From assembly GCF_000787575.1 (NCBI RefSeq), contig NW_012236494.1, forward strand, positions 62,001 through 126,000: a stretch of DNA of 64,000 bases, given 5' to 3'. This document shows, one piece after another, positions 13,136 to 61,237 of this stretch (position 1 is the stretch's first letter; the number at the start of each line of letters is the position of its first letter). The notes under the pieces were generated by a model. The model searched no databases, was not told where the DNA came from, and saw nothing but the letters and a program-made list of their open reading frames with translations. The stretch is from Acytostelium subglobosum LB1. Its lineage: Eukaryota; Evosea; Eumycetozoa; Acytosteliales; Acytosteliaceae. The position numbers were made by a program, and so were the translations under genes.

Positions 13136-16021
13136 ATCAACCCCAGTAGTAGTAGGCATCATCCCCCTTTTCTTGTCAATGTTGAAGCCAAGCCTGAGGC
13201 CGTCTGTATCCAATTACAGGATACACTAGACGTTGTTTAAATAAATTCCAGTGTTGACAAGGTACCCCTTTTTCAAACAGATTGTAGATTGACTCAAAGT
13301 CTATTCAATATGCTATGTACGAATGTTCTGTCTTGTCCTGTCCTGTGTCAATTCCGGCAAGGGCGATCATGGTCTCATCGATCACGTAAGTCAAGTCATT
13401 CATACATTCATTCATTCAGCCAGCTGTGATCAGTAAGTTGAAGGTTAGCAAATGTCCTCGGAAGTGTAGGACAACCATTAATTAGTTCTACAGCTTGGGT
13501 CTCGGGTTAAGCATTATGTGTATGTCTAGCCATCATCGAATCACTCTGGGATTGTTGAGTGTAGTTGTGTGCAAAACACAGCTTGGTCTTGTGTTGTGCT
13601 GTGTTTGACACAACACAAATTTTTATTCCTTGACTTTGGCAAAGGTTTGTGAGACACTCTCGTTGAACACATGTTCATTTTCATTTTCGAATTCGAATGC
13701 ACTGCTCGCAAGCACAGACAGAGAAGCACAACACACACAGGACAAGGATGGACAATGGACAAGAGAGAGGAATAGGTGATCGGATCAACATGGACCGTGT
13801 CTGTTATACTCACACGTATTCCACATCCACGTCATGACAAATGCACTTGTTATGCTCTTGTACATTGATTGTTGACACCTTGCATCACGACAACATCCAC
13901 CACCGTTGTCCACCTTGTCAACTAGTTGACAACCAACCATGCATGGTCACACACCCATTCCAAAAAGCCAAGTTCCATCTGTTACAACTAACCTTTTGGT
14001 AGTATATCCCTTTGTTTGTTGTTTGTTCAGAAGATATTATCTAATGTCACACAACAAGGTTGTTTGTTAGTTAACAAGATTACTTACATGATATGACCTG
14101 AAGGTAGGTGAACTTAATGTTAATGATCTTCAATCACATACACACATACACAAATATTCACTTACATGTTTGACAACAACTTCCACAACATCCACAACTA
14201 CTACCACACACCTACAACATATTTACCCTTCACATATTAGTACATTCATACATCATACCTGGCAGTTATCATTTATGATTAACTATATTCTAAATACCTT
14301 TCCAACTATTATTCATCCATCTATTCTATCTACAACCTTTTGAATCGACCGATCTATTTGTTATAAAGCCCAATACAACCATTACATCTTTAACTTCAGC
14401 CAATCAATTAATCAATCAGTCAATCAAGGTTGACACAATCCATTGTCAATCAAACACAAGTAAGGCCTCCATTATCCCCAATAACATTAATGGTAAACAT
14501 TATAATATATACATCAAACGAATGAACGAAAGAACGAACGATTGTTATTTGAATAGACCAGGGACATTGGGTCTCTTACGTGTCATGCCAAGTCCGAAAT
14601 ATACGACTCGTCAACTCAATTCAATTCACACGACCTTTCGACCCTTCGATCTTACATCGGAACACACACTATACTTTACTCGTTTCTTTTAACAATCATG
14701 AGGTGATCGGTCGTCTTCAGTCCAATCAATCGACATCTGATCAGATGTTGCACAGCATTACCTAATTTGTCGATTCAAAGACCATGCCCTATGCTCTTGT
14801 GCTCTCCACATGTTCACCATTCAATTTTGAACTCATCACATACACACCACCACCACAAACACAAAGAGGTCCAATTCATTGAAGGACCACACATTGGGCT
14901 CTCTGATCAAAACACACACACTGTTTCACCCACTCACTTCACACTCACAATCACACACATACTCCATGAATGACTGGTGATGGGTGATGGTTCCGATGCT
15001 CTGTGGTGCTCACAGAGTCTTTTTCAAAAAACAGGACACCCCCTGTGTGCATCACCATGGGTGCTGTGTCGCTCACACCATCCACAAAGGACATCGATCA
15101 AAGAAGTGATGCATGCAAGCAACTTCTGACTGAATGAATGACCCGTCGACATCATCGAACCAATCAATCAATCAACCAGCACTACCACCAAACTAAGGCA
15201 AAGGACATTCATTCTCCAGTTGTCATTGTTGTCAAATCTGTCATTGTAATTATTAATTACATCATTATTTATTATATCTGTCTGCCATTGTGTATGTGTG
15301 TATACTTATTCCACATCCATTCATACAAAGGTAAGTCATGGTCCACTCACTATATCATCACCATCAATCACATTATTATTGTTGTTATATATATTCGACC
15401 AATAACTCATAATGTTGAGTCATTAATTGTCCACGTCTGATCGTTGTCACTCATAGTGATTGATTGATCAGATAGTGTTTGGAAACCACCCATTGATGGA
15501 GTTTCTCATTTTTCCAACATTGAGACAACTCATTCATTTACTCACACACTCAAACACATCATTCCCATAATGTAAATCGTTTCAAACAACTCCTTCCTTC
15601 CCTCATCAACATCATAATACATCAATCAATCAATCAATCAATTCATGTTATATTACAAGGACCTTAACTAACTCTAAATTCTCTCTTTATTTCTCTTTCT
15701 ATAATTCAAACAATCAATCAATGTGACGTTTCATCAATCATTATTTTTTTAAAGATTGATTAGGGCCACAGGACCAACCAACACGTACCGCATCACACCC
15801 CCCTTTTTTCCCAACCAACCATTCTTCCTTCCTTTTCCAAACATTGCATTTCCAAACAACACCGGTTCAACTCATCATTCAATTGATTAGTAACTAGTTA
15901 GTTGTAAGCAATCTTTAACAAATTGTGAGTATCTTACTCAATCATACATGTATCTGTAACACACTCATACTCACTCAATCAATCAATCAACCCATCAATC
16001 CAGAATAATATAAAAGGCAAT
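13136..16021. other. long gene-free region upstream of the Gln-rich PH-like gene
   Basis: No frame longer than about 100 codons looks real. The stretch is rich in CA, CAAT and CACA runs. It has several splice-like signals, for example GTAAGT near 15331 and GTGAGT near 15925, and CCAG at 16000-16003, just before the next start. It may hold a long promoter and a 5' untranslated exon with one or more introns. This is unusually long for such a compact genome. No tRNA or other known RNA was recognised. Confidence 0.5.
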
Positions 16022-24430: not shown

Positions 24431-24659
24431 ATATAAATAAATAAGTTTATATAGATTCGTNNTTCATNNNNNNNNNNNNNNNNNNNNNNNNNNNNNNNNN
24501 NNNNNNNNNNNNNNNNNNNNNNNNNNNNNNNNNNNNNNNNNNNNNNNNNNNNNNNNNNNNNNNNNNNTCGTTCATTCATAGACAGTGGGTCTTCAATTAC
24601 TAACTGTCATACTCTCAAGTGAACGTTCAATAATATTAAGAGTACATCTCTTTATATTA
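24431..24659. repeat. tRNA-linked dispersed repeat, locus 2 (interrupted by a gap)
   Basis: This is the same arrangement as at 6964-7168. The AT stretch TAAATAAATAAGTTTATAT is followed by the start of a unit (ATTCGT, 24455-24460), then Ns, then a second unit from 24568 to 24619 and the same tail (24620-24659). The 100-N run at 24468-24567 is close to the roughly 110-base unit period, so the gap probably reflects a tandem repeat the assembler could not resolve. It lies downstream of the minus-strand tRNA-Arg. Confidence 0.75.
24468..24567. other. assembly gap (100 N) inside the tRNA-linked repeat
   Basis: A run of exactly 100 Ns, a usual placeholder for a gap of unknown size, preceded by two further Ns at 24461-24462. 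Confidence 0.95.
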
Positions 24660-37493: not shown

Positions 37494-40400
37494 ATGTCAA
37501 GTCATTATAAGTTTATATTATTTGGCATTACACTCATTATATTGTCAATGAGTCCGTTGTGTAAGTGTCTGCGCACTCATTCCATCACTCACTCACTCAC
37601 TCACTCAACAACTTTGAATTAATCAATAAACAGATCAATGTGCAGTACCATCAATAGCAAACTTTAAATTGAACAGTGGATATAGTAATAGTGTACCATG
37701 TTTACTATCATATGAGGTGTTGTTCCAGGACTATGACCCAAAGAATTTAATATCAGCAGTCAATACATCATCAGTCCAGTTCAACTCACAGGTATCACTA
37801 TTTCAGAATATGACCAACAGTCTCTACAGACTAAGATACACCATCTCAACCAATGGCACCCAAACACCTCAGTTCTCCATATCCGACTCAAAGGGTACAA
37901 TTCTAACAACCTTGAATTTTCCAGCATTCACATGTTACTGTATGTATCACTCATTCAATCCTGGAATCATTCCAAATATATGACTAACCAACCATATCAC
38001 AAACAAACAAATAGTAAACAACGTCACTATAGAAGCGAAGGTATTGAGTTCAAGCTTCAATGTGTCAACGATGGGAGTTGATGTATATCTTGATATCTAT
38101 CCACCATTGAATAATAATCAATATTCAGCTGATGTCACACCTGGAAGTGTTAGAACATTCACTCAGATGCCCAACCAACAATACTACCTCTATTTTGAAT
38201 TACCAACATCATATTTTCAATTGATCAACGTTTCACTAGCCATCACCAATCCAGGAGCCGGACTCTTTTTCAATCTTCCAGTCTTCAAGAACCAATCCAG
38301 TAAGCAAACATTGGAGACTGATCAGTCTCGGAATCATTCCATCGTCACGCACTAATCAACCAACCAACCAATCAATCAATCAATCAATCACACTAGACAT
38401 GACTACTGTCAACTCATTTTCTTACTATTTCCAGAATGATAGTAAGATATCCAAGTATAGAGAGACATTGTATTTGGATATGATTGCCAATGTTAGTGAT
38501 TGGAATAGTGATGTGGTGTCATTTATCGGTTATAGCTTGAGATCATTGCAAATACCATTGCTTGGATCAAGAAAGAATGCAGTGATCAATGTTAGGACAA
38601 CAATCGACCCCTATGATATATTTAGTAATACTTTGGTTTACGGTATCAATCAACCATCATTGTCAGTGTGGGAGCTCGACAAAGTGACCTACTCATTCCA
38701 AGAACGACTCAGTATCAATTCTATAATCAACACTTATCAGAACCATAACGATCTGGCAATGTACCGCTCAGAGGATCTAACTGATTTCCAACCAACATTG
38801 GAGGGTGGTCTACTGTATGGAACCGACTTCTCAGAGTATCCATATCCATTTGGAATCATTAGCAACAAGCCAAACTCTGGTCTATTCAAGTACAAGTATA
38901 CATATGCCTTCCCTGTCGATCTGGCCAACTCCACCGATATGAACGCACTTAACATGTACATCCTATACTGCGCCAACAGTCCAGATTATGGTACATTCTG
39001 GCAATATCTTGGTCCATATCGTATGTATCCCACTACTCACTCAATCAGAAGTAGTCTGACTCCAGTAGTCAGTCTATTCCAATTCCAATCACTGATTGGA
39101 CCAGACTACTATTCCAATTCCAATCACTAACTCAATCAAACAAATAGCAATCGCATCCACATCGATATCATTGCCCACGATCAACTTGAAGATGTTAAGT
39201 TCAGATTCATTCATTGTGAGGCTAAGGATTAGAACGAGTGGACATGCATTCCAGTTTGCTAAACTATATGGTGATGAGATCACCGCCACTCACTTGATTC
39301 AGGGTACAAATACTGATGGATGGTATGAGAGGGAGTTCTCGGTGGTGGACTACATCTTGAACCCAGTGGCAGCACCATACTTCCAATCATTCAGTGGCCG
39401 CAACGCAACTATACAATACGATTTTGTTGTCAACATCAACTTTGACATGTTCCCATCGGTACCAACAATGATGGTGGTCCCAGCTGACTTTTCATCATTC
39501 CAATTCCAACCAAGTTATATTGATGTGACCAATGGACCTCGGGATGTAGTCCTAACATTTGGTCTCAAGTCATCATATCCAACATCAATGATACAACCCT
39601 ACCTGTACATTGATCAGTTTGAAGAGTCCATACTCCCACTCAACAGGTCACACCTCCTGCCCGCCACCTACGACGTTGTCTCACAGACCTACTCGATCTC
39701 CTTTACCGTTCGCGAGAAGCTCTTCACAAGGGCACTGGCCTATCGACTGTTCATTGGTGGAGCATGCTTGAGACCAAAGTACTTGTCAACTAGCAAGTTG
39801 ATCCAGAACAATGCCTTCCTCCAAGTGTACTCAGAGTACGCAGACGAGATGGGTCCGATTGTGTCCAGTTTGATACCAAAGATGGGCACTGTCGTCGTGT
39901 CCTCCTCGTTGCCCGTCAACTGGGTAGAGTTAGGTTGGTCAGTAACAATCGATGACTATCCAGCGGGATTCAGTCATGGATTGGCAGTGATCAGATCGGA
40001 CATTGACAATGAACCACGCAACATATCATTCACATTACTGGACGCCATCAGTGGAGACAAGTATCAATCAACATACCGCTTGATGTTCAATATTAGCACA
40101 ACATGTACCAGTCAGTCATTCTATCCCAGTCTGGAACTATATGACACACTTGGCAACATGGCCACCAACCTACGATCGACCAAGGACAACTCCCCATACA
40201 TCACGCCATTCTACAAACTGGATAGTCCATTCCGTATTGATCGATCTATTGTTGTCAATTGCACTGGTTCCAATGATACGGTGGCGCCATCGATCATGAC
40301 CCTCGACCTACAACCATACACTGTTGATGTTGGAAGTAATGATCGAAAATTCCAAGTCAACATCACCGTGGCCGACTCTGGAAGTGGGATATCAACACGT

Positions 40401-47249: not shown

Positions 47250-49690
47250 TTAGCAATCGCACATTCTAAGGATAAAGTTGCGTAGTTGACCTCCACGACG
47301 AGATTGATCTCTCTTGATACGTTCGAAGCTCTTGACTACGCTTATGTAGTGCTTGACAAAGTCTCGAAGAGAGTATATTCCTGAACCAAACTGAATCATC
47401 TCTGGATGTAGCTTGAACATGACCTTTCGCTGGAGGAGATCTTGTCGGACACCTTGGAATGAAAGGTCCAACTCCTTGAGTGCCTCGTTAAGGTCCGTCT
47501 CGCTATCGTAACCTTCCTCGCGTGCTTGATTGAATACCAATTGGATGATGTGTTGGAGTGAGCGACAGATGGCCGTGATCATATGCTTTAGAGGTGCCCT
47601 GATGGGTGCCATGGCCGACAACATGTCATCAGAGAACTCATAGTCGAATGCATTGTCAAAGGCCACCAGTCTGGTGTAGAGTTTGGACAGGTTCTCCAAC
47701 ATCTCTAGGTAGTAGGCCACGTGCATCTTGGGATGGATGGCCAGCTCAGACTTGATGTCATAGATCAAGCCCTTCTGAGCCGACATACTGACTCTGATCT
47801 TTCTGATGGATCCGGCAATTTCCTGTTTGATTACTGCGCGCTGTTCTGGTGAGCCGTCACTCTCAAGTCGCAGGCCAAGGTCCACAATCTTGATGAAGGT
47901 CTCGGCGATCGTGTTGGTCACCTCAAAGTACTTGAACCGTGAGGTCTTGTAGGTAAAGAATGGGAAGAGCATAAGAGACACGATGATCACCCATATGATT
48001 CCAAGACTGACGTTGAAGATACGGTTGACGGCGATCATGTAGGTGAAGTGATGGGCAAAGAACTCTCCATAGGTGATGATCATCAGTGTGAGGGCAAACA
48101 CTGCGCCCGCATAGCTGAAGCGAACATCTTGCTGAACAAATGAGGCTGAGAACACGGCGATAAAGGTGGACACTGCAAGGATTACCTGTTTGACTGGCTC
48201 ATTTACGACGTTTACCAGCATCATGATGAGGACACCAAGGCCACCACCCAGTACTGTTCCAATGAGACGATGGAAACCACGTGTCAGTGTTGCGCCCAGT
48301 GATGGTGACATTACCAGGCCAACTGTGGCGCACATCCAAATGCCACGAAGTTCAAATCGATCTGCAGACGTGCCTTCAAAGTAGTAGAATACTGATGCGG
48401 CAGCGGTGAAGGCCACTGACAGCTGTAGAGGGAACTTCCACTTCCTGTTGGCAAACCATAGATTGTAGAAGTACCTGAGGATCCATGCGAGTAGAAGGGT
48501 GAAGCTTGATGAGTGTGCGCTGCCAGGTTGACTTGGATCATAGCTCCGCAGTTCTTTGATGTTGCTCAATAGTAGTCTCCATCGCTTGATTAGGTATCTT
48601 GGGAAGGCCATGATCAACCAGGGTAGTCCATGCATGATGATCTCAATTGGCACTGGATAGGAGCTAGAGTCATTGTTGATTTCAAAGATGATGTCGGAGA
48701 TCTGACGTTGGTTCTGAGCAAACACTGTGATGCTAAAGATGAAGAAGTGGATCTTTGAAACCTCAGAGGCATCGAGCAGGGGCAGGTTGTTGCGTTGGTA
48801 CTCGTGCACCAACTTCTTGTAGGTACTGCTGCACTCTTGAACCAATGCCTCGGTCTCCTGTAGCGACTGCTCCAGGATGGACGTGGTGAGTTGATACTCG
48901 GACTGTCCCTTCTCCACGTCGAGACGGAGATGGTCATGTACTGAGTGCTTGTTGACCAGGATATGGATGATGAGGCCAATCTGAAGGAAGACCTCTTCGA
49001 TGATCGAGTCCAAAAATGGCAACACTGGTATCAGGATCTCTTGACGGGCAAAGTAGCTGAAGCCATTGGACACGGCCAACTTGATCGATATCAGCTGCTT
49101 CTGGTTCATCTCCAACACTGTGAGCAGACGCTCAAAGTGTCCGATCAACTTTAGGTTCCAACGCTCTTGACGACACTCGACCAACAGCTTGGTCAGACGA
49201 TCGATCTGCTTCACGAGGTGTATCTCCATCTGTGCGAGTTCGCCCTCACTCGGTATGAGTACAGCAGTGGAGAGCACCTGTTTCTTGCTCATCTTCTTGG
49301 AGAACAATTCCTTCTCCAGTGCAGTCGATCGGCTCAGAGGCAGTGGGCCCCGAGTCTCGCCAGTTGTCGTGTCGCTGTGTTTGTGATCGCCACGCAGAAA
49401 GTCCTTGAGCTTCTTGAAACTCTTGTTCTTTGGCATGCTGGCGCCTTCATCAGAGTGTTTCCGGCGATGTTGTTTCGGTGTTGTGTTGCCAGGTGTTGTT
49501 GATTGTGATGATGTTGTCGATGGTCCTTCTGATGATGATGATGTGACATCGATGCTTGGAGGCGACGGCACTGTCTCCACACCAATGACGTCGGGGATTA
49601 CACATGAATGATCGGGTGATGATATTGATTCGGGTGACTGATCTGGTTGGGTTGGGATTGGGATGCTCATAGTTTGATTGAGTGGCGTGA

Positions 49691-49724
<34 letters not shown>

Positions 49725-50513
49725 GATTGGATCAAGATTGATACCAAGTAGATCATCCTCTTCTATATCGTTTGATGATCCAACGCTTTGATCGTTCAAA
49801 GGTGAGTCGCTGCTTATTGGTATGTCATTGGGGTGTGGAAACATGGGGAATGTGAATGAACTATTCTTCTTCATCTCTCGCTCATCATGACTGACACTAG
49901 CCTCCATCTGATATCCAACGCCTCTGAACAGGATCCTCGTGCTGTTCAACGTCTTGATGATCTTCCTCTGGAACAGTCTGGTGGCAAGTGTTGGCGCCAC
50001 GATCAGACCCACCACAAGGATACTAGCAACGATCATGAGCGACGACATTAACGAGTCCCATATCTGTGAGCCCTTGTTCTCGCGTGGCGAAAAATATAGT
50101 ATGATGGTGATGTCGATCAATGTCTTTTTGACCAGAAGTTGATTGAACCATCGTCGTCCAATTGCCGTGCTAGTCATGATGAACACGAATGGCATCAGGA
50201 TGATGAAGCTGATCCAGAACAGATCTTCGGGAACGATGATGAACACCAAGTATACGTATAGTGAACTGAACAGACTGGCATATACCAATGTGGCACCATT
50301 GATGATGGCCGTCCATACTGAGAGAGTACATGTGATAATTATACAAAAGATCGGTACGAATAACAATGTGTTTGGATTGATATTTGATGGAATTAGAGTG
50401 AGTATGGCTGAAAGAGTAACAATGGCAGCCTCTCTCAATGCTATAATAGTTTCAAATCTCCATAACTTCTTCTTCTTTCCAGTTGTATTATAATAATATT
50501 GTTTCAGTTTCAT
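47250..50513 (-). CDS. FUSC/aromatic-acid-exporter-like multi-span membrane protein
   Basis: A 1087-residue intronless protein. It has two hydrophobic blocks of about five or six spans each. The first (about 20-195) starts FETIIALREAAIVTLSAILT. The second (about 700-880) includes LRGIWMCATVGLVMSPSLGA, GFHRLIGTVLGGGLGVLIMM and FSYAGAVFALTLMIITYGEF. The G-T-x-x-G-G motif and the duplicated layout with a long helical cytoplasmic linker are typical of FUSC/ALMT-like transporters (efflux of aromatic or organic acids). An Asn run and Ser/Pro-rich loop lie between the halves. Substrate is unknown. It could sit at the plasma membrane or vacuole. Confidence 0.85.
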
Positions 50514-54979: not shown

Positions 54980-55261
54980 ATGAAGTTTATTATCATTATC
55001 ATAGTTCTATGTTTCCTATTAAAAATAATTAAATCTCATCCTTCCTTTGTTTTGGATATGCCTGGTTTTGATATTATTGAGCCAGAGAAGCCTAACTTTA
55101 ATCCTTATTTAGATCCTGCCAAGAAAACGATAGAAGGCCTATCCCAATTGAATTCCGGAATTCCTATATCATTCCATGGAATGCCTGGTCTCCCTATGGA
55201 CTTTGGAGCAGACTATGACCCTTATTTTCAGTCATCAGAATCGAGGAACAGTTTTGTTTGA
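54980..55261 (+). CDS. small secreted protein
   Basis: A 93-residue intronless protein. A strong signal peptide (FIIIIIVLCFLLKIIKS) is followed by a Pro/Phe/Asp-rich mature part without cysteines (HPSFVLDMPGFDIIEPEKP). The upstream region is very AT-rich, as expected for a promoter. No family recognised; the gene could be lineage-specific. Confidence 0.65.
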   Translation: MKFIIIIIVLCFLLKIIKSHPSFVLDMPGFDIIEPEKPNFNPYLDPAKKTIEGLSQLNSGIPISFHGMPGLPMDFGADYDPYFQSSESRNSFV

Positions 55262-55333: not shown

Positions 55334-56566
55334 TTATAAATAGATGATAATAAAACATGGCTTGGCTTGTTCGACGTTGTATACGATGCATTCGTCGTAG
55401 TTGAGCGATTGGCCAGTCTCGCCCAGCACACTGTCAAAGCCCGCAGACGGGCTTTTGATCGTGACATGATCGTTATATAACTTCTCTCCATTGCCGACGA
55501 GCACGTCGGCGATGAACATGTACTTGTAGCCAGTGCCACCGTTGGTGTAGTCGTGGCTCTTGGACGACACGCTAGAGAAGTAGATGCCAGGACCAAAACG
55601 TAGGAAGTTGTTGAAATTGTTGGTGCTGTTTTGAGTGGGCAGGATGAACGACTGTTCGACGATGCGACATACGTTGCACTTGGATGAGCGACACAGCGAC
55701 ATGCCTCTGACGCCCAGGCCGCAATCGACCTTTGTGCCATGGAAACGTCGGCAACTGTTACCGGCCTTGAGCTGTTTACCATTCTGCTGCTTCTTGCTGA
55801 CAAATTTGCCAACGGCTTCGATCTCGCTGCGCTTGGCTTCGAAGCGGCGTACAACGTCCATCGCCGGATTGACCTTGAGGATGTGTTGGATGACGCCACA
55901 GGGCTTCTTTGAGATGGGATGGTGCCATTTGGACGTGAATTGATCGGATACGGTTTTGAATTCCGGGTCGCTTGGGTCGAGCTTCATGACCGAGGCAAAG
56001 TTCTTCCTGTCCTGCACAGCGTGCTTCTTGGTGCAGTAGTCGTAGCCACTGGCGCGAGGATTGTTGCAACCATTCAGCTTGCAGAAGTTGGCAGCAGGCG
56101 AGCCAACACCGGTGGTGGGTGAGCCTGAGGATGAGGAAGAAGCAGACAAGGTGCTGTAGTGCTGTCCATGGGTCTTTGTACAAAAGTCATAAGGGTAGCT
56201 TGCAGGCCTCGTGCAGCCTGTGAACTTGCATATTTGCGCGGCGGGGATTGCAGTCGAGGTCGTTGATGTCGTAGAGGTCATTGGCTGTTGCTGCGAATTG
56301 ACCCATTCATTATATTGTGCGACATGAGTTCGTGAACAGAACTCTGAACCTGCGTAAACGGTATTTGAGCAACCTTGTAGTTTACATATTGTTGCTGCAG
56401 ACGACGATGATGTAGTCGTAGTCGTCGTCGACGTCGACATTGTCACATCAGTGTCGCGATCGCGCGATGGCAACTGGTAATACATTGATCCATGAGTGCG
56501 TCCACAGAACTCGTATCCAGGGTAGACGCGAGTGCTGCAACCAGGGTATTTACAAGTGATACACAT
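55334..56566 (-). CDS. PARP-fold ADP-ribosyltransferase with four Cys/His knuckles
   Basis: A 410-residue intronless protein. Four copies of a small knuckle, C-x4-C-x10-C-x3-H (for example CKLQGCSNTVYAGSEFCSRT plus H), lie near residues 5-25, 61-81, 113-133 and 162-182, joined by Ser/Thr linkers. The C-terminal 180 residues form a PARP catalytic domain: RRFHGTKVDCGLG with H276, RFGPGIYFSSVSSKSHDY with Y329, and LNYDECIVY with E392, so the H-Y-E triad is complete. A CRSSKCNVC pair sits inside the domain, as in fungal PARP-like proteins of this architecture. It should transfer ADP-ribose from NAD+. It is divergent from the NADAR gene, 224 bases away, and probably shares control with it. Confidence 0.88.
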   Translation of the reverse strand: MCITCKYPGCSTRVYPGYEFCGRTHGSMYYQLPSRDRDTDVTMSTSTTTTTTSSSSAATICKLQGCSNTVYAGSEFCSRTHVAQYNEWVNSQQQPMTSTTSTTSTAIPAAQICKFTGCTRPASYPYDFCTKTHGQHYSTLSASSSSSGSPTTGVGSPAANFCKLNGCNNPRASGYDYCTKKHAVQDRKNFASVMKLDPSDPEFKTVSDQFTSKWHHPISKKPCGVIQHILKVNPAMDVVRRFEAKRSEIEAVGKFVSKKQQNGKQLKAGNSCRRFHGTKVDCGLGVRGMSLCRSSKCNVCRIVEQSFILPTQNSTNNFNNFLRFGPGIYFSSVSSKSHDYTNGGTGYKYMFIADVLVGNGEKLYNDHVTIKSPSAGFDSVLGETGQSLNYDECIVYNVEQAKPCFIIIYL

Positions 56567-56790
56567 CTCCTAGCCCTTTGAGCTGTTCGTAGTAGTATAT
56601 GTACTTTATATGTATATAACAATGAAGTGAGTGAGTGAATAAATGAAAGGTCCACTAACTTAATACAAGATGTGCTTATCCTAAAACTCTACTCAACTTC
56701 ATTTATAAACATCTATCTCTCGCTCATGCATGTAAATGTACACGTACACGTACATCATATACGGTCGCGACTAACATATACAACAAGAGA
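56567..56790. promoter_or_regulatory. shared promoter of the PARP and NADAR genes
   Basis: Only 224 bases separate the two start codons. A GTACACGTACACGTACATC-like tandem (near 56735-56757) is the most striking element and contains repeated ACGT cores. Co-regulation is inferred. Confidence 0.5.
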
Positions 56791-57690
56791 ATGAAGATCA
56801 GCGACTTACCAAGCGATAATACGATCATGTGGATCACGCCGTCGCCCTTGGTGATGACCACAGAGGACAGAATGATGATCGAGCGACTCGAGAGCTGCGG
56901 CAAGCGATTCATCTACGTGCACCCAGAAGACGTCAACCTGGTCAACTACAACCGATGTCTATTCATACTCATGTCGGCCGCACAGTGGTCCTATCAGCTA
57001 GCCGTACACAACATGCTGCCCTTGGACGACATCAAGGTGCCACTCATTCTACTGCTGAGCCAGGTCACGCCGGTGGGCCTGCCACCCACCTGCCTCAAGG
57101 ACCGAGAGCTGATCACACACAGCCAGCTTGCCAACAACTACTACTTGGCCGCTGACACGCGTCGTTGTATGGGCAATAATGCTCGACAGACTGACACAAG
57201 CACAGGCCCAATCTACTTTTATCACCAAGACCAGCCATACTACCAGTTCACCAACTTCTTCCAAGCGCCATTCGAACTCGATGGATTGACGTGGCGCACG
57301 GCTGAGCACTACTTCCAGGCACAAAAGTTCGTTCCACATCACAATCTGGTTCAGTACGTCAATGAACTAAGGACGCCACGCGAAGCATTCGAGTTCTCGC
57401 GTAATCCCAAGGTCAAGGATTCGCTGCGACACGACTGGCGAGACATCAAAGACGGCATAATGTACAAGGCAGTACAGGCCAAGTTCAATCAGAGTCCAGA
57501 GCTCATGGAGTTGCTGATCAATACAGGAAAGCGCGACCTGGTCGAGCACACCAGGAACGACAACTACTGGGGCGATGGAGGCGATGGAACCGGGCAGAAC
57601 CGGCTTGGACTAATTCTCATGAAAGTCAGATCAGAGTTGCAAGACAGGTACTGGCATTCATCATCATCCACCAGCGTGCCAGCACTATAG
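56791..57690 (+). CDS. NADAR-domain protein (possible ADP-ribose glycohydrolase)
   Basis: A 299-residue intronless protein. The C-terminal 155 residues form a NADAR (YbiA-like) domain: QFTNFFQAPFELDGLTWRTA, EHYFQAQKF, a middle NPKVKDSLRHDWRDIKDGIM, then LVEHTRNDNYWGDGGDGTGQN and RLGLILMKVRSEL. These are the family's conserved blocks, including the Glu of AEHYFQAQ and the W-G-D-G stretch. NADAR proteins act on N-glycosidic bonds; some remove ADP-ribose from guanine in conflict systems, others act in riboflavin metabolism. The first 115 residues are a separate alpha/beta part (RLESCGKRFIYVHPEDV, CLFILMSAAQWSYQLAV) I cannot place. It converges on the seven-knuckle gene, 107 bases away. Confidence 0.88.
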   Translation: MKISDLPSDNTIMWITPSPLVMTTEDRMMIERLESCGKRFIYVHPEDVNLVNYNRCLFILMSAAQWSYQLAVHNMLPLDDIKVPLILLLSQVTPVGLPPTCLKDRELITHSQLANNYYLAADTRRCMGNNARQTDTSTGPIYFYHQDQPYYQFTNFFQAPFELDGLTWRTAEHYFQAQKFVPHHNLVQYVNELRTPREAFEFSRNPKVKDSLRHDWRDIKDGIMYKAVQAKFNQSPELMELLINTGKRDLVEHTRNDNYWGDGGDGTGQNRLGLILMKVRSELQDRYWHSSSSTSVPAL

Positions 57691-57797
57691 CAAGACATGC
57701 GTCACATCGATGTAAATATATAATATATTATAGTTTAGTATACATTCAACATGGGCTGGCTCTCATCCTGGTGAGGCCTTGGACCCAAACTCATTCA

Positions 57798-58400
57798 CTA
57801 CTGGCCACCGGCATGCAGTTGGCCATGAGTGCGACAGCAGAATTCGTGTGGAGAAAATACAGGCTTGGTGCATCCAGTCAACTTGCAGGTTTGAGATATG
57901 TTGGTCGATGTCGTCAAAGTTGGAGTGGTGGTCGTACTCGTAGACGTAGTGGCTGGCTGTGCCGTTGGCTGTGCCGTTGGTTTTGCTGCTGGTTGTGCTG
58001 ATGGTTGTGCAGGCGGAGTAGCCACTGGACCTGTTGAACTGTTGGCAGCAGTAAGACCCTGGGATTGGGACTTGTAAAGCCTTCCATGATTCTTGGAGCA
58101 GAACTCGAATTGACCGAATACTGGATTGTTACAGCCAGCTATCTTGCAGGTTGATGGTGTCATTGACTTTGGCGGTGCAGCAGCAGCAGGCGGTGTTGTT
58201 GTTGTTTGTGTTGGGGATGAGGTGGCGGCATTCGTTGTCGATGTTGATGCCGTTGATTTTGTTGATGTCTGCTTGCTGCTTTGATGTTGCTGAGCATGGC
58301 CACGAGAGCAATACTCATGTGGAGCAAACACTGGTTGTGAGCATCCAGAAAGCTTGCATGTTGCGGGTGCCTGAGGCTGTGATTGGGCCTGCACCTGAGA

Positions 58401-58439
<39 letters not shown>

Positions 58440-59743
58440 TGTGCCATTGCCAAGCTGAGGCTGAGCAACAACAGGTGATTGAATGGTCTGTGTTGTGACC
58501 ACATTGCTTGGCTGTATCTGAGACAACAATAACGCCTGTTGGAACTGCTGACCATGCGAACGTGTGCAGAACTCATAACCAGGATACAAAGCCTTGTTGC
58601 AACCAGGAAGCTTGCATGTTGTAGGCGCCGCGGCGGGTACAGCAGGAGCAATGGGAACAACCACAACAACATTAGCCTGTCCCTGAGTCAGTGTGCTCAA
58701 GAACTCATTGGCATGTGTTCGCGTACAGTAATCGTGACCTGGTTGCACATCCTTGTTACAGTCTGGCATCTTGCAGGTCAGTCTTGTCTTGAGTACCACA
58801 GGGTTGAGACTTGTCTGATACAGGTGGTGGTGAGTGCGAGAGCATGTCTCGTGGCCACCAGGAGCCACTGGCTTGTCACAACCGGCCAACTTGCAAGTGT
58901 TTGGGTCCTTGACCTTGTTGGTAATATCTGTCGTCATATTCTCGTCCTCGATAAGGTAGAAGGTGTCCATGTACTGCTGAGCATGAGTTCTTCCACAGAA
59001 GTCATGGTCAACGTCGTGGACTGGCTTAAGACAACCTTTGAGTTTGCACAGTCCCTTTGTTGTATGCTGTGCATAAGGATGGTATGGTGCTACATTTGAC
59101 GTAGTCGTCGATGTCGATGTTGTTGCAGATGTCGATGATGGTGATGGCAAGGAGGTAGTCGTCTCCACACCCTGCATTGGTTGAGATTGGTCTTGATCTG
59201 CGCCACTCTCAATCGCCATTGTGTAGTCGATGAATTTGGTTCCTTGATTGGAAACGCGAGTTGAGTTCTCTTGTGTCATTATTGGTATAATGGTGATCTG
59301 GGAGAAAGGATGTCAGTCAACTGCATATCAAGATGCATGTGTTCGAACGAATTGCAACATACTGATGGTTGAGTGACAATGGAGTTGGTGATCTTGCCAA
59401 GTAGTGCGAGTTGGTCCTGTGTAATCTGATTGGCCAACGTGCTACAACAGTTGAACACACGGTCGTAGTCTGCTTGGTTCAGTCCATGGTAGAGCAGGTA
59501 TAGGATGGACTGTTGGACAACAACACGCATCGGTATCTTGTCAACACTCTCTGATTGTGAGGTGTTGAGCAGTTGAGCTACATTATCAACCAATCCTGCT
59601 GGCTGGGTATCAGTTGTAGTAATATTGAGTATGTCCTTGCAGACCTGGCACAATGCCTCGACATTGACAGGTTGTTCGGCATCGATCTCATAGCTGTCAG
59701 CCAGTCTGACCAACAATCCAAACTTCTCTTGATTCATTGTCAT
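57798..59743 (-). CDS. seven-knuckle Cys/His repeat protein of the ADP-ribosylation island
   Basis: Exons 59743-59363 and 59297-57798 give 626 residues. The N-terminal 127 residues are a predicted all-helical domain (FGLLVRLADSYEIDAEQPVN; QITQDQLALLGKITNSIV). From about residue 211 to the end come seven copies of the same knuckle as in the neighbouring PARP, for example CKLPGCNKALYPGYEFCTRS plus H and CKIAGCNNPVFGQFEFCSKN plus H, with Gln/Thr/Ala/Pro-rich linkers including a Gln run and a (PTAQPTAQP)-like tail. No catalytic domain is visible, so it looks like a reader or scaffold. It is divergent from the ART gene, 42 bases between start codons. Confidence 0.85.
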
Positions 59744-59785
59744 CGTGTATCTGTCTGTTTGTTAGTGTATCTGTGCACACAGTGA

Positions 59786-60538
59786 ATGAATGGCAAAAAC
59801 AACAATGAGTTGATGGTTCATTCAGTTTCACGAGCTAGTGAATGTATAACTAACTACATGTACAATAACCAATTCTACATTGATGATGATGTAGACTATT
59901 CCGACTACCTTGCTAGTTTAGCCAACAACAACAACGACAACTACACTTATAATAACTTTATCAACAACATCACTTTAAATAACATGGTCAATTACAACAA
60001 CAGCAACAGCGGTAGTGTGCCTCGGTATCAATATCAGAAACAGAGTAGACCGAATCCTAGACAACGCAGACGAATGAGGGAACGCAGGGAGACACTGGAT
60101 AACGATCAACATCTGATTACGCAGGTGCAGGACAAACTACACGAGATCGCCAACGACGTCATGTACCACGGAACATCCACTGCCAACGCAATGTCGATCA
60201 TGTCGCACGGCTTTGTCTCTAGCCACCACGGTCTGCTTGGCTACGGCGTCTACCTGGCCTCGGAAGAGAAAGCCGAGAACTTTGCCCGCGATGCAAAGAA
60301 TCGCGGTAAAGGCGACGGCGCCACCATTCTCATGTGTTCCTACCATGCACCGCGAATAGCTATCGCAGTGACAGCGGAGGAAGCCGAAGACGACTGGCAA
60401 GACAGCTACGACGCAATGTGGGTGGGCTCCACCTCTCGCTCGACACGACCCGAGCTATGCATCGCCAATGCTGCCAATGTAGTTGTTATTGGATACAAAT
60501 ACCTAGGCGAGACCGAATATCGTAATCCACATTGCTAG
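59786..60538 (+). CDS. second ADP-ribosyltransferase-fold protein (PARP-like)
   Basis: A 250-residue intronless protein. The first 75 residues are Asn/Tyr-rich, then a basic stretch (RPNPRQRRRMRERRE). Residues of about 118 to 245 carry an ART fold: MYHGTSTANAMSIMSHGF (H128), GLLGYGVYLASEEKAENFAR (Y156) and RPELCIANAANVVVIGYKYL (E223). This resembles the compact PARP-like domain of fish Gig2 and similar proteins. The H-Y-E set appears complete, but whether it mono-ADP-ribosylates a protein or nucleic acid is unknown. The first ATG is used; a later Met (residue 25) is possible because only 42 bases separate it from the divergent gene. Its 3' end may overlap the opposite zinc-finger gene by 36 bases. 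Confidence 0.82.
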   Translation: MNGKNNNELMVHSVSRASECITNYMYNNQFYIDDDVDYSDYLASLANNNNDNYTYNNFINNITLNNMVNYNNSNSGSVPRYQYQKQSRPNPRQRRRMRERRETLDNDQHLITQVQDKLHEIANDVMYHGTSTANAMSIMSHGFVSSHHGLLGYGVYLASEEKAENFARDAKNRGKGDGATILMCSYHAPRIAIAVTAEEAEDDWQDSYDAMWVGSTSRSTRPELCIANAANVVVIGYKYLGETEYRNPHC

Positions 60539-60925: not shown

Positions 60926-60969
<44 letters not shown>

Positions 60970-61137
60970 GAATGATATATAAACAAGATGAAGGTATTGG
61001 GATTGATCTTTCGAAAGATTATTGAATGTATTTGGGATGTAACTTACTTTGAGGGTTGGATAGATGCCTCCATCCGTTGCTAGTAGATGGAAGGGTAAAC
61101 TGATGTTTTCCACAGTAATTGCACATTGCGATATGTG
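60503..61137 (-). CDS. zinc-finger protein, N-terminus lost in an assembly gap
   Basis: Model with minus-strand exons (gap)-61048, 60899-60800 and 60728-60503. The phases agree only in the frame reading AMCNYCGKHQFTLPSTSNGW then RHLSNPQIPCHLACG, which looks like a BED- or C2H2-type finger (C-x2-C...H...H). It then reads IDWEEVDANTKPDPNTNWLF and a Gly- and hydrophobic-rich end. The first intron carries ten or so CAAT units and a TACTAAC branch-like site. The C-terminal exon is uncertain, since other frames are open too. The gene faces away from the hAT-like fragment across the gap. Confidence 0.42.
60926..60965 (-). repeat. (CAAT)n microsatellite inside an intron
   Basis: About ten tandem CAAT units on the minus strand (ATTG on plus), the longest such run in the window. 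It lies in the first visible intron of the minus-strand zinc-finger gene. Confidence 0.85.
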
Positions 61138-61237
61138 NNNNNNNNNNNNNNNNNNNNNNNNNNNNNNNNNNNNNNNNNNNNNNNNNNNNNNNNNNNNNNN
61201 NNNNNNNNNNNNNNNNNNNNNNNNNNNNNNNNNNNNN
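61138..61237. other. assembly gap (100 N)
   Basis: Exactly 100 Ns, a placeholder of unknown true size. Two zinc-finger-like genes diverge from its edges and lose their 5' ends in it. Confidence 0.95.

What the first reader, a model, noticed from the sequence alone, without database searches (positions are those of the whole stretch)
55334..60538. ADP-ribosylation island: PARP, NADAR, knuckle-array protein and a second ART side by side
Four adjacent genes combine an NAD+-using writer (PARP with complete H-Y-E), a possible eraser (NADAR), a protein with seven copies of the knuckle that also decorates the PARP, and a second ART-fold enzyme. Spacers are 224, 107 and 42 bases, and the pairs are divergent, convergent, divergent. 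Clusters of functionally linked genes are unusual in amoebae. NADAR proteins are known from bacterial and phage conflict systems in which ADP-ribose on guanine is reversed. A cluster like this could be a eukaryotic ADP-ribosylation switch for defence, DNA damage or development. Function is inferred from domains and layout.
Basis: partly seen in the sequence, partly recalled or inferred. Interest (0 to 1): 0.92.

Follow-up and report, generated by a model that had tools for sequence, protein, structure and literature searches.

The report
PARP–NADAR gene cluster in an amoeba
Four neighbouring genes of what looks like a social amoeba encode two enzymes that could attach ADP-ribose, one that could remove it from nucleotide bases, and a repeat protein sharing a zinc-binding-type motif with the first enzyme; the parts are real, but whether they work together is untested.

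Summary
In 55334-60538 four ORFs lie as described, with spacers of 224, 107 and 42 bases, no N inside, and divergent-convergent-divergent order. A (PARP) passes the Pfam cut-off (51.3 vs 26.7 bits) and shares its H-Y-E positions with a phage PARP. B is a confident NADAR (E 4e-36) of the YbiA subfamily: E172, K179, E252, D257 and W260 are invariant in 81 of 81 aligned rows. A and C share one motif, CK-x3-C-x10/11-C-x3-H, 4 and 7 copies. D is a weak but credible PARP-type ART (26.2 bits whole, 27.6 after trimming; cut-off 26.7).

B's kin include riboflavin-intermediate N-glycosidases as well as guanine-ADP-ribose hydrolases. Short spacers also occur just outside the cluster. Conservation of the neighbourhood in other dictyostelids, the decisive test, could not be run because no eukaryotic collection is on hand. 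Closest precedent: the myxobacterial YarT-YbiA toxin-antitoxin pair (PMC11125620). I rate it an interesting, testable new variant, not a demonstrated switch.

The parts
55334..56566 (-). Gene A: knuckle-PARP, 410 aa
   Evidence: ORF; PF00644 E 1.3e-13; nearest solved structures PARP3 E 3.6e-7, ZAP/PARP13, PARP4, tankyrase
56021..56554 (-). Four knuckles of gene A
   Evidence: pattern scan, alignment
55334..55804 (-). PARP catalytic part of A with H276, Y329, E392
   Evidence: alignment with one phage PARP, positions
56567..56790 (.). Spacer between divergent A and B, 224 bases, 35% GC; possible shared promoter
   Evidence: promoter role inferred
56791..57690 (+). Gene B: NADAR protein, 299 aa
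   Evidence: PF08719 E 4e-36; YbiA 2b3w E 2.1e-35
56791..57207 (+). N-terminal extension of B (139 aa), unidentified
   Evidence: no Pfam match over cut-off and no PDB match; no match to the 5 bacterial relatives with an extension of 60 aa or more (best E 0.45)
57211..57642 (+). NADAR domain of B with E172, K179, W216, K220, E252, D257, W260
   Evidence: alignment with 80 bacterial loci
57798..59297 (-). Gene C exon 2: seven knuckles and low-complexity linkers
57825..59048 (-). Seven knuckles of gene C
   Evidence: pattern scan, alignment
59298..59362 (-). Intron of gene C, 65 bases, GT..AG
   Evidence: splice sites read from sequence, no transcript data
59363..59743 (-). Gene C exon 1: 127-aa N-terminal part, no known domain found
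59786..60538 (+). Gene D: small PARP-type ART, 250 aa, putative H128, Y156, E223
   Evidence: PF00644 6.8e-6 whole, 27.6 bits trimmed; hhalign to the A-plus-phage PARP profile E 8.6e-4 over 42 columns covering H and Y; E by eye; positions

Best explanation
A small ADP-ribosylation toolkit. A is an active-looking PARP brought to its target by four knuckles; C carries seven copies of the same knuckle and no recognised enzyme domain, so it most likely binds the same ligand and acts as scaffold, reader or competitor for A; B is a YbiA-type NADAR that hydrolyses an N-glycosidic ADP-ribose (or ribose) bond, most plausibly on guanine or a guanine-containing nucleotide, and so can limit what A or D produce; D is a second, small ART. 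The two divergent pairs (A-B and C-D) could each share a promoter. Shown: genes, domains, active-site-type residues, knuckle sharing. Inferred: enzyme activity, substrate, knuckle ligand, coupling and co-expression.
For: PARP with H-Y-E. NADAR with the residues that bind ADP-ribose and catalyse in characterised members: E172/K179/E252/D257/W260 keep the spacing of E43/K50/E125/D130/W133 of Phytophthora NADAR, and that eukaryotic enzyme hydrolyses guanine-ADP-ribose (PMC11543638, passages). Same knuckle in A and C, matched by BLASTP at 6e-14 within the window, and no other such array in the 64 kb. ART-YbiA adjacency has a functional precedent: YarT-YbiA (PMC11125620, section 2.2). A and D do not look like recent duplicates: BLASTP of each against the window's ORFs does not find the other at E 1.
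Against: No test of conservation or expression was possible. The genes are not an operon. B scores above cut-off as a riboflavin-intermediate N-glycosidase. Bacterial NADARs had no or negligible activity on PARP10-made uracil-ADP-ribose (PMC13036486, passages), so B need not reverse what A makes; reversal of protein ADP-ribosylation by a NADAR was not met in the passages I read. A and C could share knuckles through local duplication. D's assignment is weak (hhalign probability 23.5%).
Confidence: 0.4

Rival explanations
1. Neighbours by chance and local duplication. In a compact genome, A and C share knuckles because one arose from the other nearby; B is a metabolic damage-control N-glycosidase of the riboflavin pathway or a general YbiA; D is an unrelated small PARP. 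No joint mechanism.
For: Spacers of 72 and 284 bases occur just outside the cluster. B exceeds the riboflavin N-glycosidase cut-off and is 44.5-52.9% identical to 80 bacterial YbiA-like loci of many phyla. The paper that solved NADAR structures says that YbiA-like NADARs tied to motility seem closely related to flavin-biosynthetic NADARs of plants and fungi (PMC11543638, passages).
Against: Two ARTs and a NADAR within 5.2 kb is a lot for chance if such genes are few per genome (rough estimate from recalled gene numbers, no call: well under 1 in 100; it ignores that the locus was picked for being odd). I recall, without a call, that Dictyostelium defined medium contains riboflavin, which would leave little to damage-control; one literature listing did not settle it.
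Confidence: 0.4
2. A eukaryotic toxin-antidote or antiviral module: D or A ADP-ribosylates guanine in DNA or RNA of an invader or as a cell-death trigger, B protects the cell, the knuckles of A and C recognise foreign or damaged nucleic acid.
For: DarT1-NADAR and YarT-YbiA work as toxin-antitoxin pairs in bacteria. Knuckles give weak matches to fingers described as DNA-binding or transposon-associated: CxC6 in 5 of 11 copies, Zf_WRKY19 in 3, zf-C3Hc3H in 1, at E up to 10.
Against: CxC6 is below its curated cut-off in A and C and the best per-copy E is 0.0036. D has no detectable kin in plasmids or phages, nor in 282 genomes of the phylum of the Nannocystis genome G001 or 296 of the phylum of the Xanthocytophaga genome G003, though those genome searches had no positive control. 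YarT itself was not compared with D. B falls well short of the anti-phage NADAR model. Not an operon.
Confidence: 0.15

Closest known systems
YarT-YbiA toxin-antitoxin pair (myxobacteria; PMC11125620, section 2.2)
   Same: An ART with H-Y-E residues beside a YbiA-subfamily NADAR; B has the subfamily glutamate.
   Different: Bacterial operon with one small HYD1-clade ART; here eukaryotic, divergent genes, a knuckle-PARP and a PARP-type ART, plus a knuckle array protein. YarT sequences were not compared here. No functional data here.
DarT1-NADAR (DarTG1; PMC11543638, passages and section 12)
   Same: ART next to NADAR; guanine ADP-ribose reversal.
   Different: DarT1 partners are BC4488-type NADARs with aspartate; B has glutamate E252. 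A and D match PARP; no DarT family was listed for them in the four libraries scanned.
E. coli YbiA / riboflavin-intermediate N-glycosidases (TIGR02464)
   Same: B matches over the whole domain, E 4.5e-36, above cut-off; YbiA structure 2b3w E 2.1e-35.
   Different: B has a 139-aa N-terminal extension; the median extension in 80 bacterial relatives is 5 aa, with 60 aa or more in 5 of 80.
Zinc-finger PARPs such as PARP7/12/13 (CCCH fingers plus PARP; PMC4245714, passages)
   Same: Several small Cys/His motifs in front of a PARP domain.
   Different: Different motif (C-x4-C-x10/11-C-x3-H); no WWE domain listed by Pfam.
Short Cys-Cys-Cys-His fingers: CxC6, Zf_WRKY19, zf-C3Hc3H, EsV-1-7, finger of COMPASS subunit Spp1
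   Same: Similar size and Cys/His order; weak profile matches.
   Different: All weak (best per copy 0.0036; Spp1 0.069); array context differs.

Membership tests
PARP (ARTD), gene A | PF00644 above gathering score and H-Y-E triad | tested here: met
   51.3 vs 26.7 bits; H276, Y329, E392 aligned to one phage PARP
DNA-repair type PARP, gene A | WGR or PARP regulatory domain | tested here: not met
   no such Pfam hit up to E 1
PARP-type ART, gene D | PF00644 match and H-Y-E triad | tested here: inconclusive
   26.2 bits whole, 27.6 trimmed, cut-off 26.7; H and Y aligned by hhalign, probability 23.5%, E 8.6e-4; E by eye only; fold model failed, mean pLDDT 33.2
NADAR superfamily, gene B | PF08719 above gathering score | tested here: met
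   125.2 vs 35.1 bits
NADAR, YbiA subfamily, gene B | catalytic glutamate in the last strand (Asp in BC4488, His in phage) | tested here: met
   E252, invariant in 81 of 81 rows (the phage NADAR L002 was not matched and is not among the rows); rule from PMC11125620 and PMC11543638; position matched by spacing, not by structure
Guanine-ADP-ribose hydrolase, gene B | removes ADP-ribose from guanine | not testable with these tools
   residues compatible only
Riboflavin-intermediate N-glycosidase, gene B | TIGR02464 above cut-off; activity on intermediates | tested here: inconclusive
   cut-off met, 124.4 vs 73.7; activity not testable
ART-NADAR toxin-antitoxin system | adjacent, co-oriented operon | tested here: not met
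   adjacent but divergent or convergent
ART-NADAR toxin-antitoxin system | toxicity of the ART relieved by the NADAR | not testable with these tools
   bench test
PBZ (PAR-binding zinc finger), knuckles | PBZ profile match | tested here: not met
   no PBZ family among the 6 families listed for the 11 copies at E up to 10; HMMER filters can drop weak matches
CxC6 finger (PF18721), knuckles | gathering score 27.5 bits | tested here: not met
   22.9 bits in A, 22.2 in C
Conserved functional gene cluster | same neighbourhood in related species | not testable with these tools
   no own genome held, no eukaryotic collection on hand

The most novel reading that the evidence does not exclude
A eukaryotic reversible nucleic-acid ADP-ribosylation system with a dedicated knuckle reader: the knuckle is a new ADP-ribose or nucleic-acid binding module that directs PARP A and adaptor C to the same sites, where guanine-linked ADP-ribose is written by A or D and erased by B.
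Probability: 0.12. Interest if true: 0.9.

Novelty: new variant of a known kind. Interest (0 to 1): 0.52.

Why it matters
The roles of NADARs in eukaryotes are stated to be unclear in the field's own papers (PMC11125620, passage). A locus that places a NADAR beside two candidate writers and a protein sharing the PARP's recognition motif, in a group with a tractable laboratory relative, would make that question directly testable.

Tried and rejected
AlphaFold2 from single sequences failed for B (mean pLDDT 38.8) and D (33.2), so no fold search was run. I suspected a TIR-like fold in the first 139 aa of B from its sequence pattern; Pfam up to E 10 gave only a HAT-repeat hit at 0.038, below cut-off, and the PDB search nothing, so I make no claim. 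A Rhodococcus plasmid match to that region (E 0.01) lies antisense to the annotated gene there and was dropped as chance. Relatives of A, B, C, D and the knuckle profile in viral contigs: none confirmed; this means little, since for B no stretch even matched a pattern while tblastn found B relatives in 375 of 50,697 phage records. D in plasmids and phages: none; in 4, 282 and 296 bacterial genomes: none, without positive control. A in phages: 4 of 50,697 records, 29-30% identity. Of 81 fetched NADAR loci given to tblastn, the phage locus L002 was not matched at 1e-5 and is left out of the alignment; the other 80 are the best of 560 relatives, so conservation is biased to close kin. Literature listings for NADAR with PARP, dictyostelids, fungi, Acytostelium, or Dictyostelium with DUF1768 showed no paper on such a cluster (titles and abstract starts; several of the searches listed only the first 10-15 of many papers). 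Passages or sections were read in nine papers. Most subscription papers are not in that library. Two further listings, on CxC6 and on EsV-1-7, gave nothing on these knuckles. Riboflavin need of Dictyostelium was not settled.
Full report
What is there. The window appears to be from a dictyostelid-like amoeba: short GT..AG intron, poly-N and poly-Q runs, compact genes; this is inference, no genome is held for it. Four ORFs fill 55334-60538 with spacers of 224, 107 and 42 bases, in divergent, convergent, divergent order, with no N inside.

Gene A (55334-56566, minus) is a 410-aa PARP. PF00644 scores 51.3 bits over a 26.7 cut-off; solved relatives found by sequence are PARP3, PARP13, PARP4, tankyrase and PARP2, E 3.6e-7 to 0.064. 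H276, Y329 and E392 are identical in the alignment with a Klebsiella phage PARP at 37% identity. No WGR or regulatory domain was listed up to E 1, so it does not have the architecture of a DNA-repair PARP. Four knuckles precede the catalytic part.

Gene B (56791-57690, plus) is a NADAR (E 4e-36) whose best solved relative is E. coli YbiA (E 2.1e-35) rather than the NADAR 8bau (E 9.3e-8). In an alignment with 80 bacterial relatives, 44.5-52.9% identical over the domain, E172, K179, E252, D257 and W260 are invariant in 81 of 81 rows, W216 is W in 80 (one X), and K220 is K in 78 and R in 3. These fit, by spacing, E43, K50, E125, D130, W133, W89 and R93 of the Phytophthora enzyme (PMC11543638, section 12). 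The 80 loci were the best of 560 relatives, so conservation is biased to close kin; one fetched phage NADAR (L002) was not matched and is not among the rows. The glutamate places B in the YbiA subfamily. The 139-aa N-terminal extension has no known relative by Pfam, by PDB sequence, or among the 5 of 80 bacterial relatives that have an extension of 60 aa or more.

Gene C (59743-57798, minus, one 65-base intron) is 626 aa with seven knuckles separated by 18-66 residues after a 127-aa first exon of unknown kind. The 11 knuckles of A and C keep C, K, C, C and H in 11 of 11 copies and G in 10. Shuffled proteins give about 0.002 per protein. Per-copy Pfam matches at E up to 10 are weak: CxC6 in 5 of 11, Zf_WRKY19 in 3, zf-C3Hc3H, EsV-1-7 and two others in 1 each; the profile's best solved match is Spp1 of COMPASS, E 0.069. 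Metal binding is inferred from the Cys/His pattern.

Gene D (59786-60538, plus) is a small ART: PF00644 at 26.2 bits whole (just under the 26.7 cut-off) and 27.6 for its last 145 residues, a trim chosen afterwards, with YHGTS, GYGVYL and PEL motifs. hhalign against the A-plus-phage PARP profile gives E 8.6e-4 but only 23.5% probability over 42 columns. No relative in PDB sequences up to E 1, plasmids or phages.

What it means. The strongest link inside the cluster is A to C, which share the knuckle; either targeting to one ligand or local duplication explains it. The link of B to the ARTs is positional plus precedent: bacterial YarT-YbiA and DarT1-NADAR (PMC11125620, first part of the text and section 2.2; PMC11543638, passages). 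Against a simple switch: NADARs are guanine-linked ADP-ribose hydrolases in those papers, while A resembles PARPs, known mostly as protein modifiers; bacterial NADARs had no or negligible activity on PARP10-made uracil-ADP-ribose (PMC13036486, passages); and YbiA-class enzymes also cleave riboflavin intermediates. So B would erase a product of A or D only if that product is on guanine, or on another base or small molecule that B accepts.

Spacing is poor evidence: the ORF at 54980-55261 ends 72 bases from A and the UbiA-family gene starts 284 bases before that ORF. The nearest identified flanking genes, a UbiA-family enzyme and a bZIP factor, have no ADP-ribose link that I know of; ORFs between 60.6 and 62.8 kb were not searched. 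A rough chance estimate for two ARTs and a NADAR within 5.2 kb, from recalled gene numbers and no call, is well under 1%; it favours some link but ignores duplication and the fact that the locus was picked for being odd.

Verdict. I found no paper on such a cluster in the listings, but that library lacks most subscription papers, and dictyostelid genome annotation was not searchable here.

Noticed in passing
54980-55261 (+): 93-aa ORF beginning with a hydrophobic, signal-like stretch, 72 bases from the 3' end of A; no search made with it.
   Followed up: no
56791-57207: N-terminal extension of the NADAR protein has, to the eye, a strand-helix alternation reminiscent of TIR-like or Rossmann-type domains; profile searches found nothing.
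   Followed up: partly
55334-55804 (-): Between H and Y of PARP A lies a stretch with four cysteines, most of it a gap in the aligned phage PARP; possibly a metal site inside the catalytic domain.
   Followed up: no
L001/L002 (Klebsiella phage 05F01): One phage genome carries both a PARP (38213-38599) and a NADAR (14136-14576), about 24 kb apart.
   Followed up: no
24468-24567 and 61138-61237: Runs of 100 N, likely scaffold gaps.
   Followed up: no
60927-60974: Tandem ATTG repeat downstream of D.
   Followed up: no
47250-50513 (-): Large protein with an ALMT/FUSC-type transporter domain.
   Followed up: no
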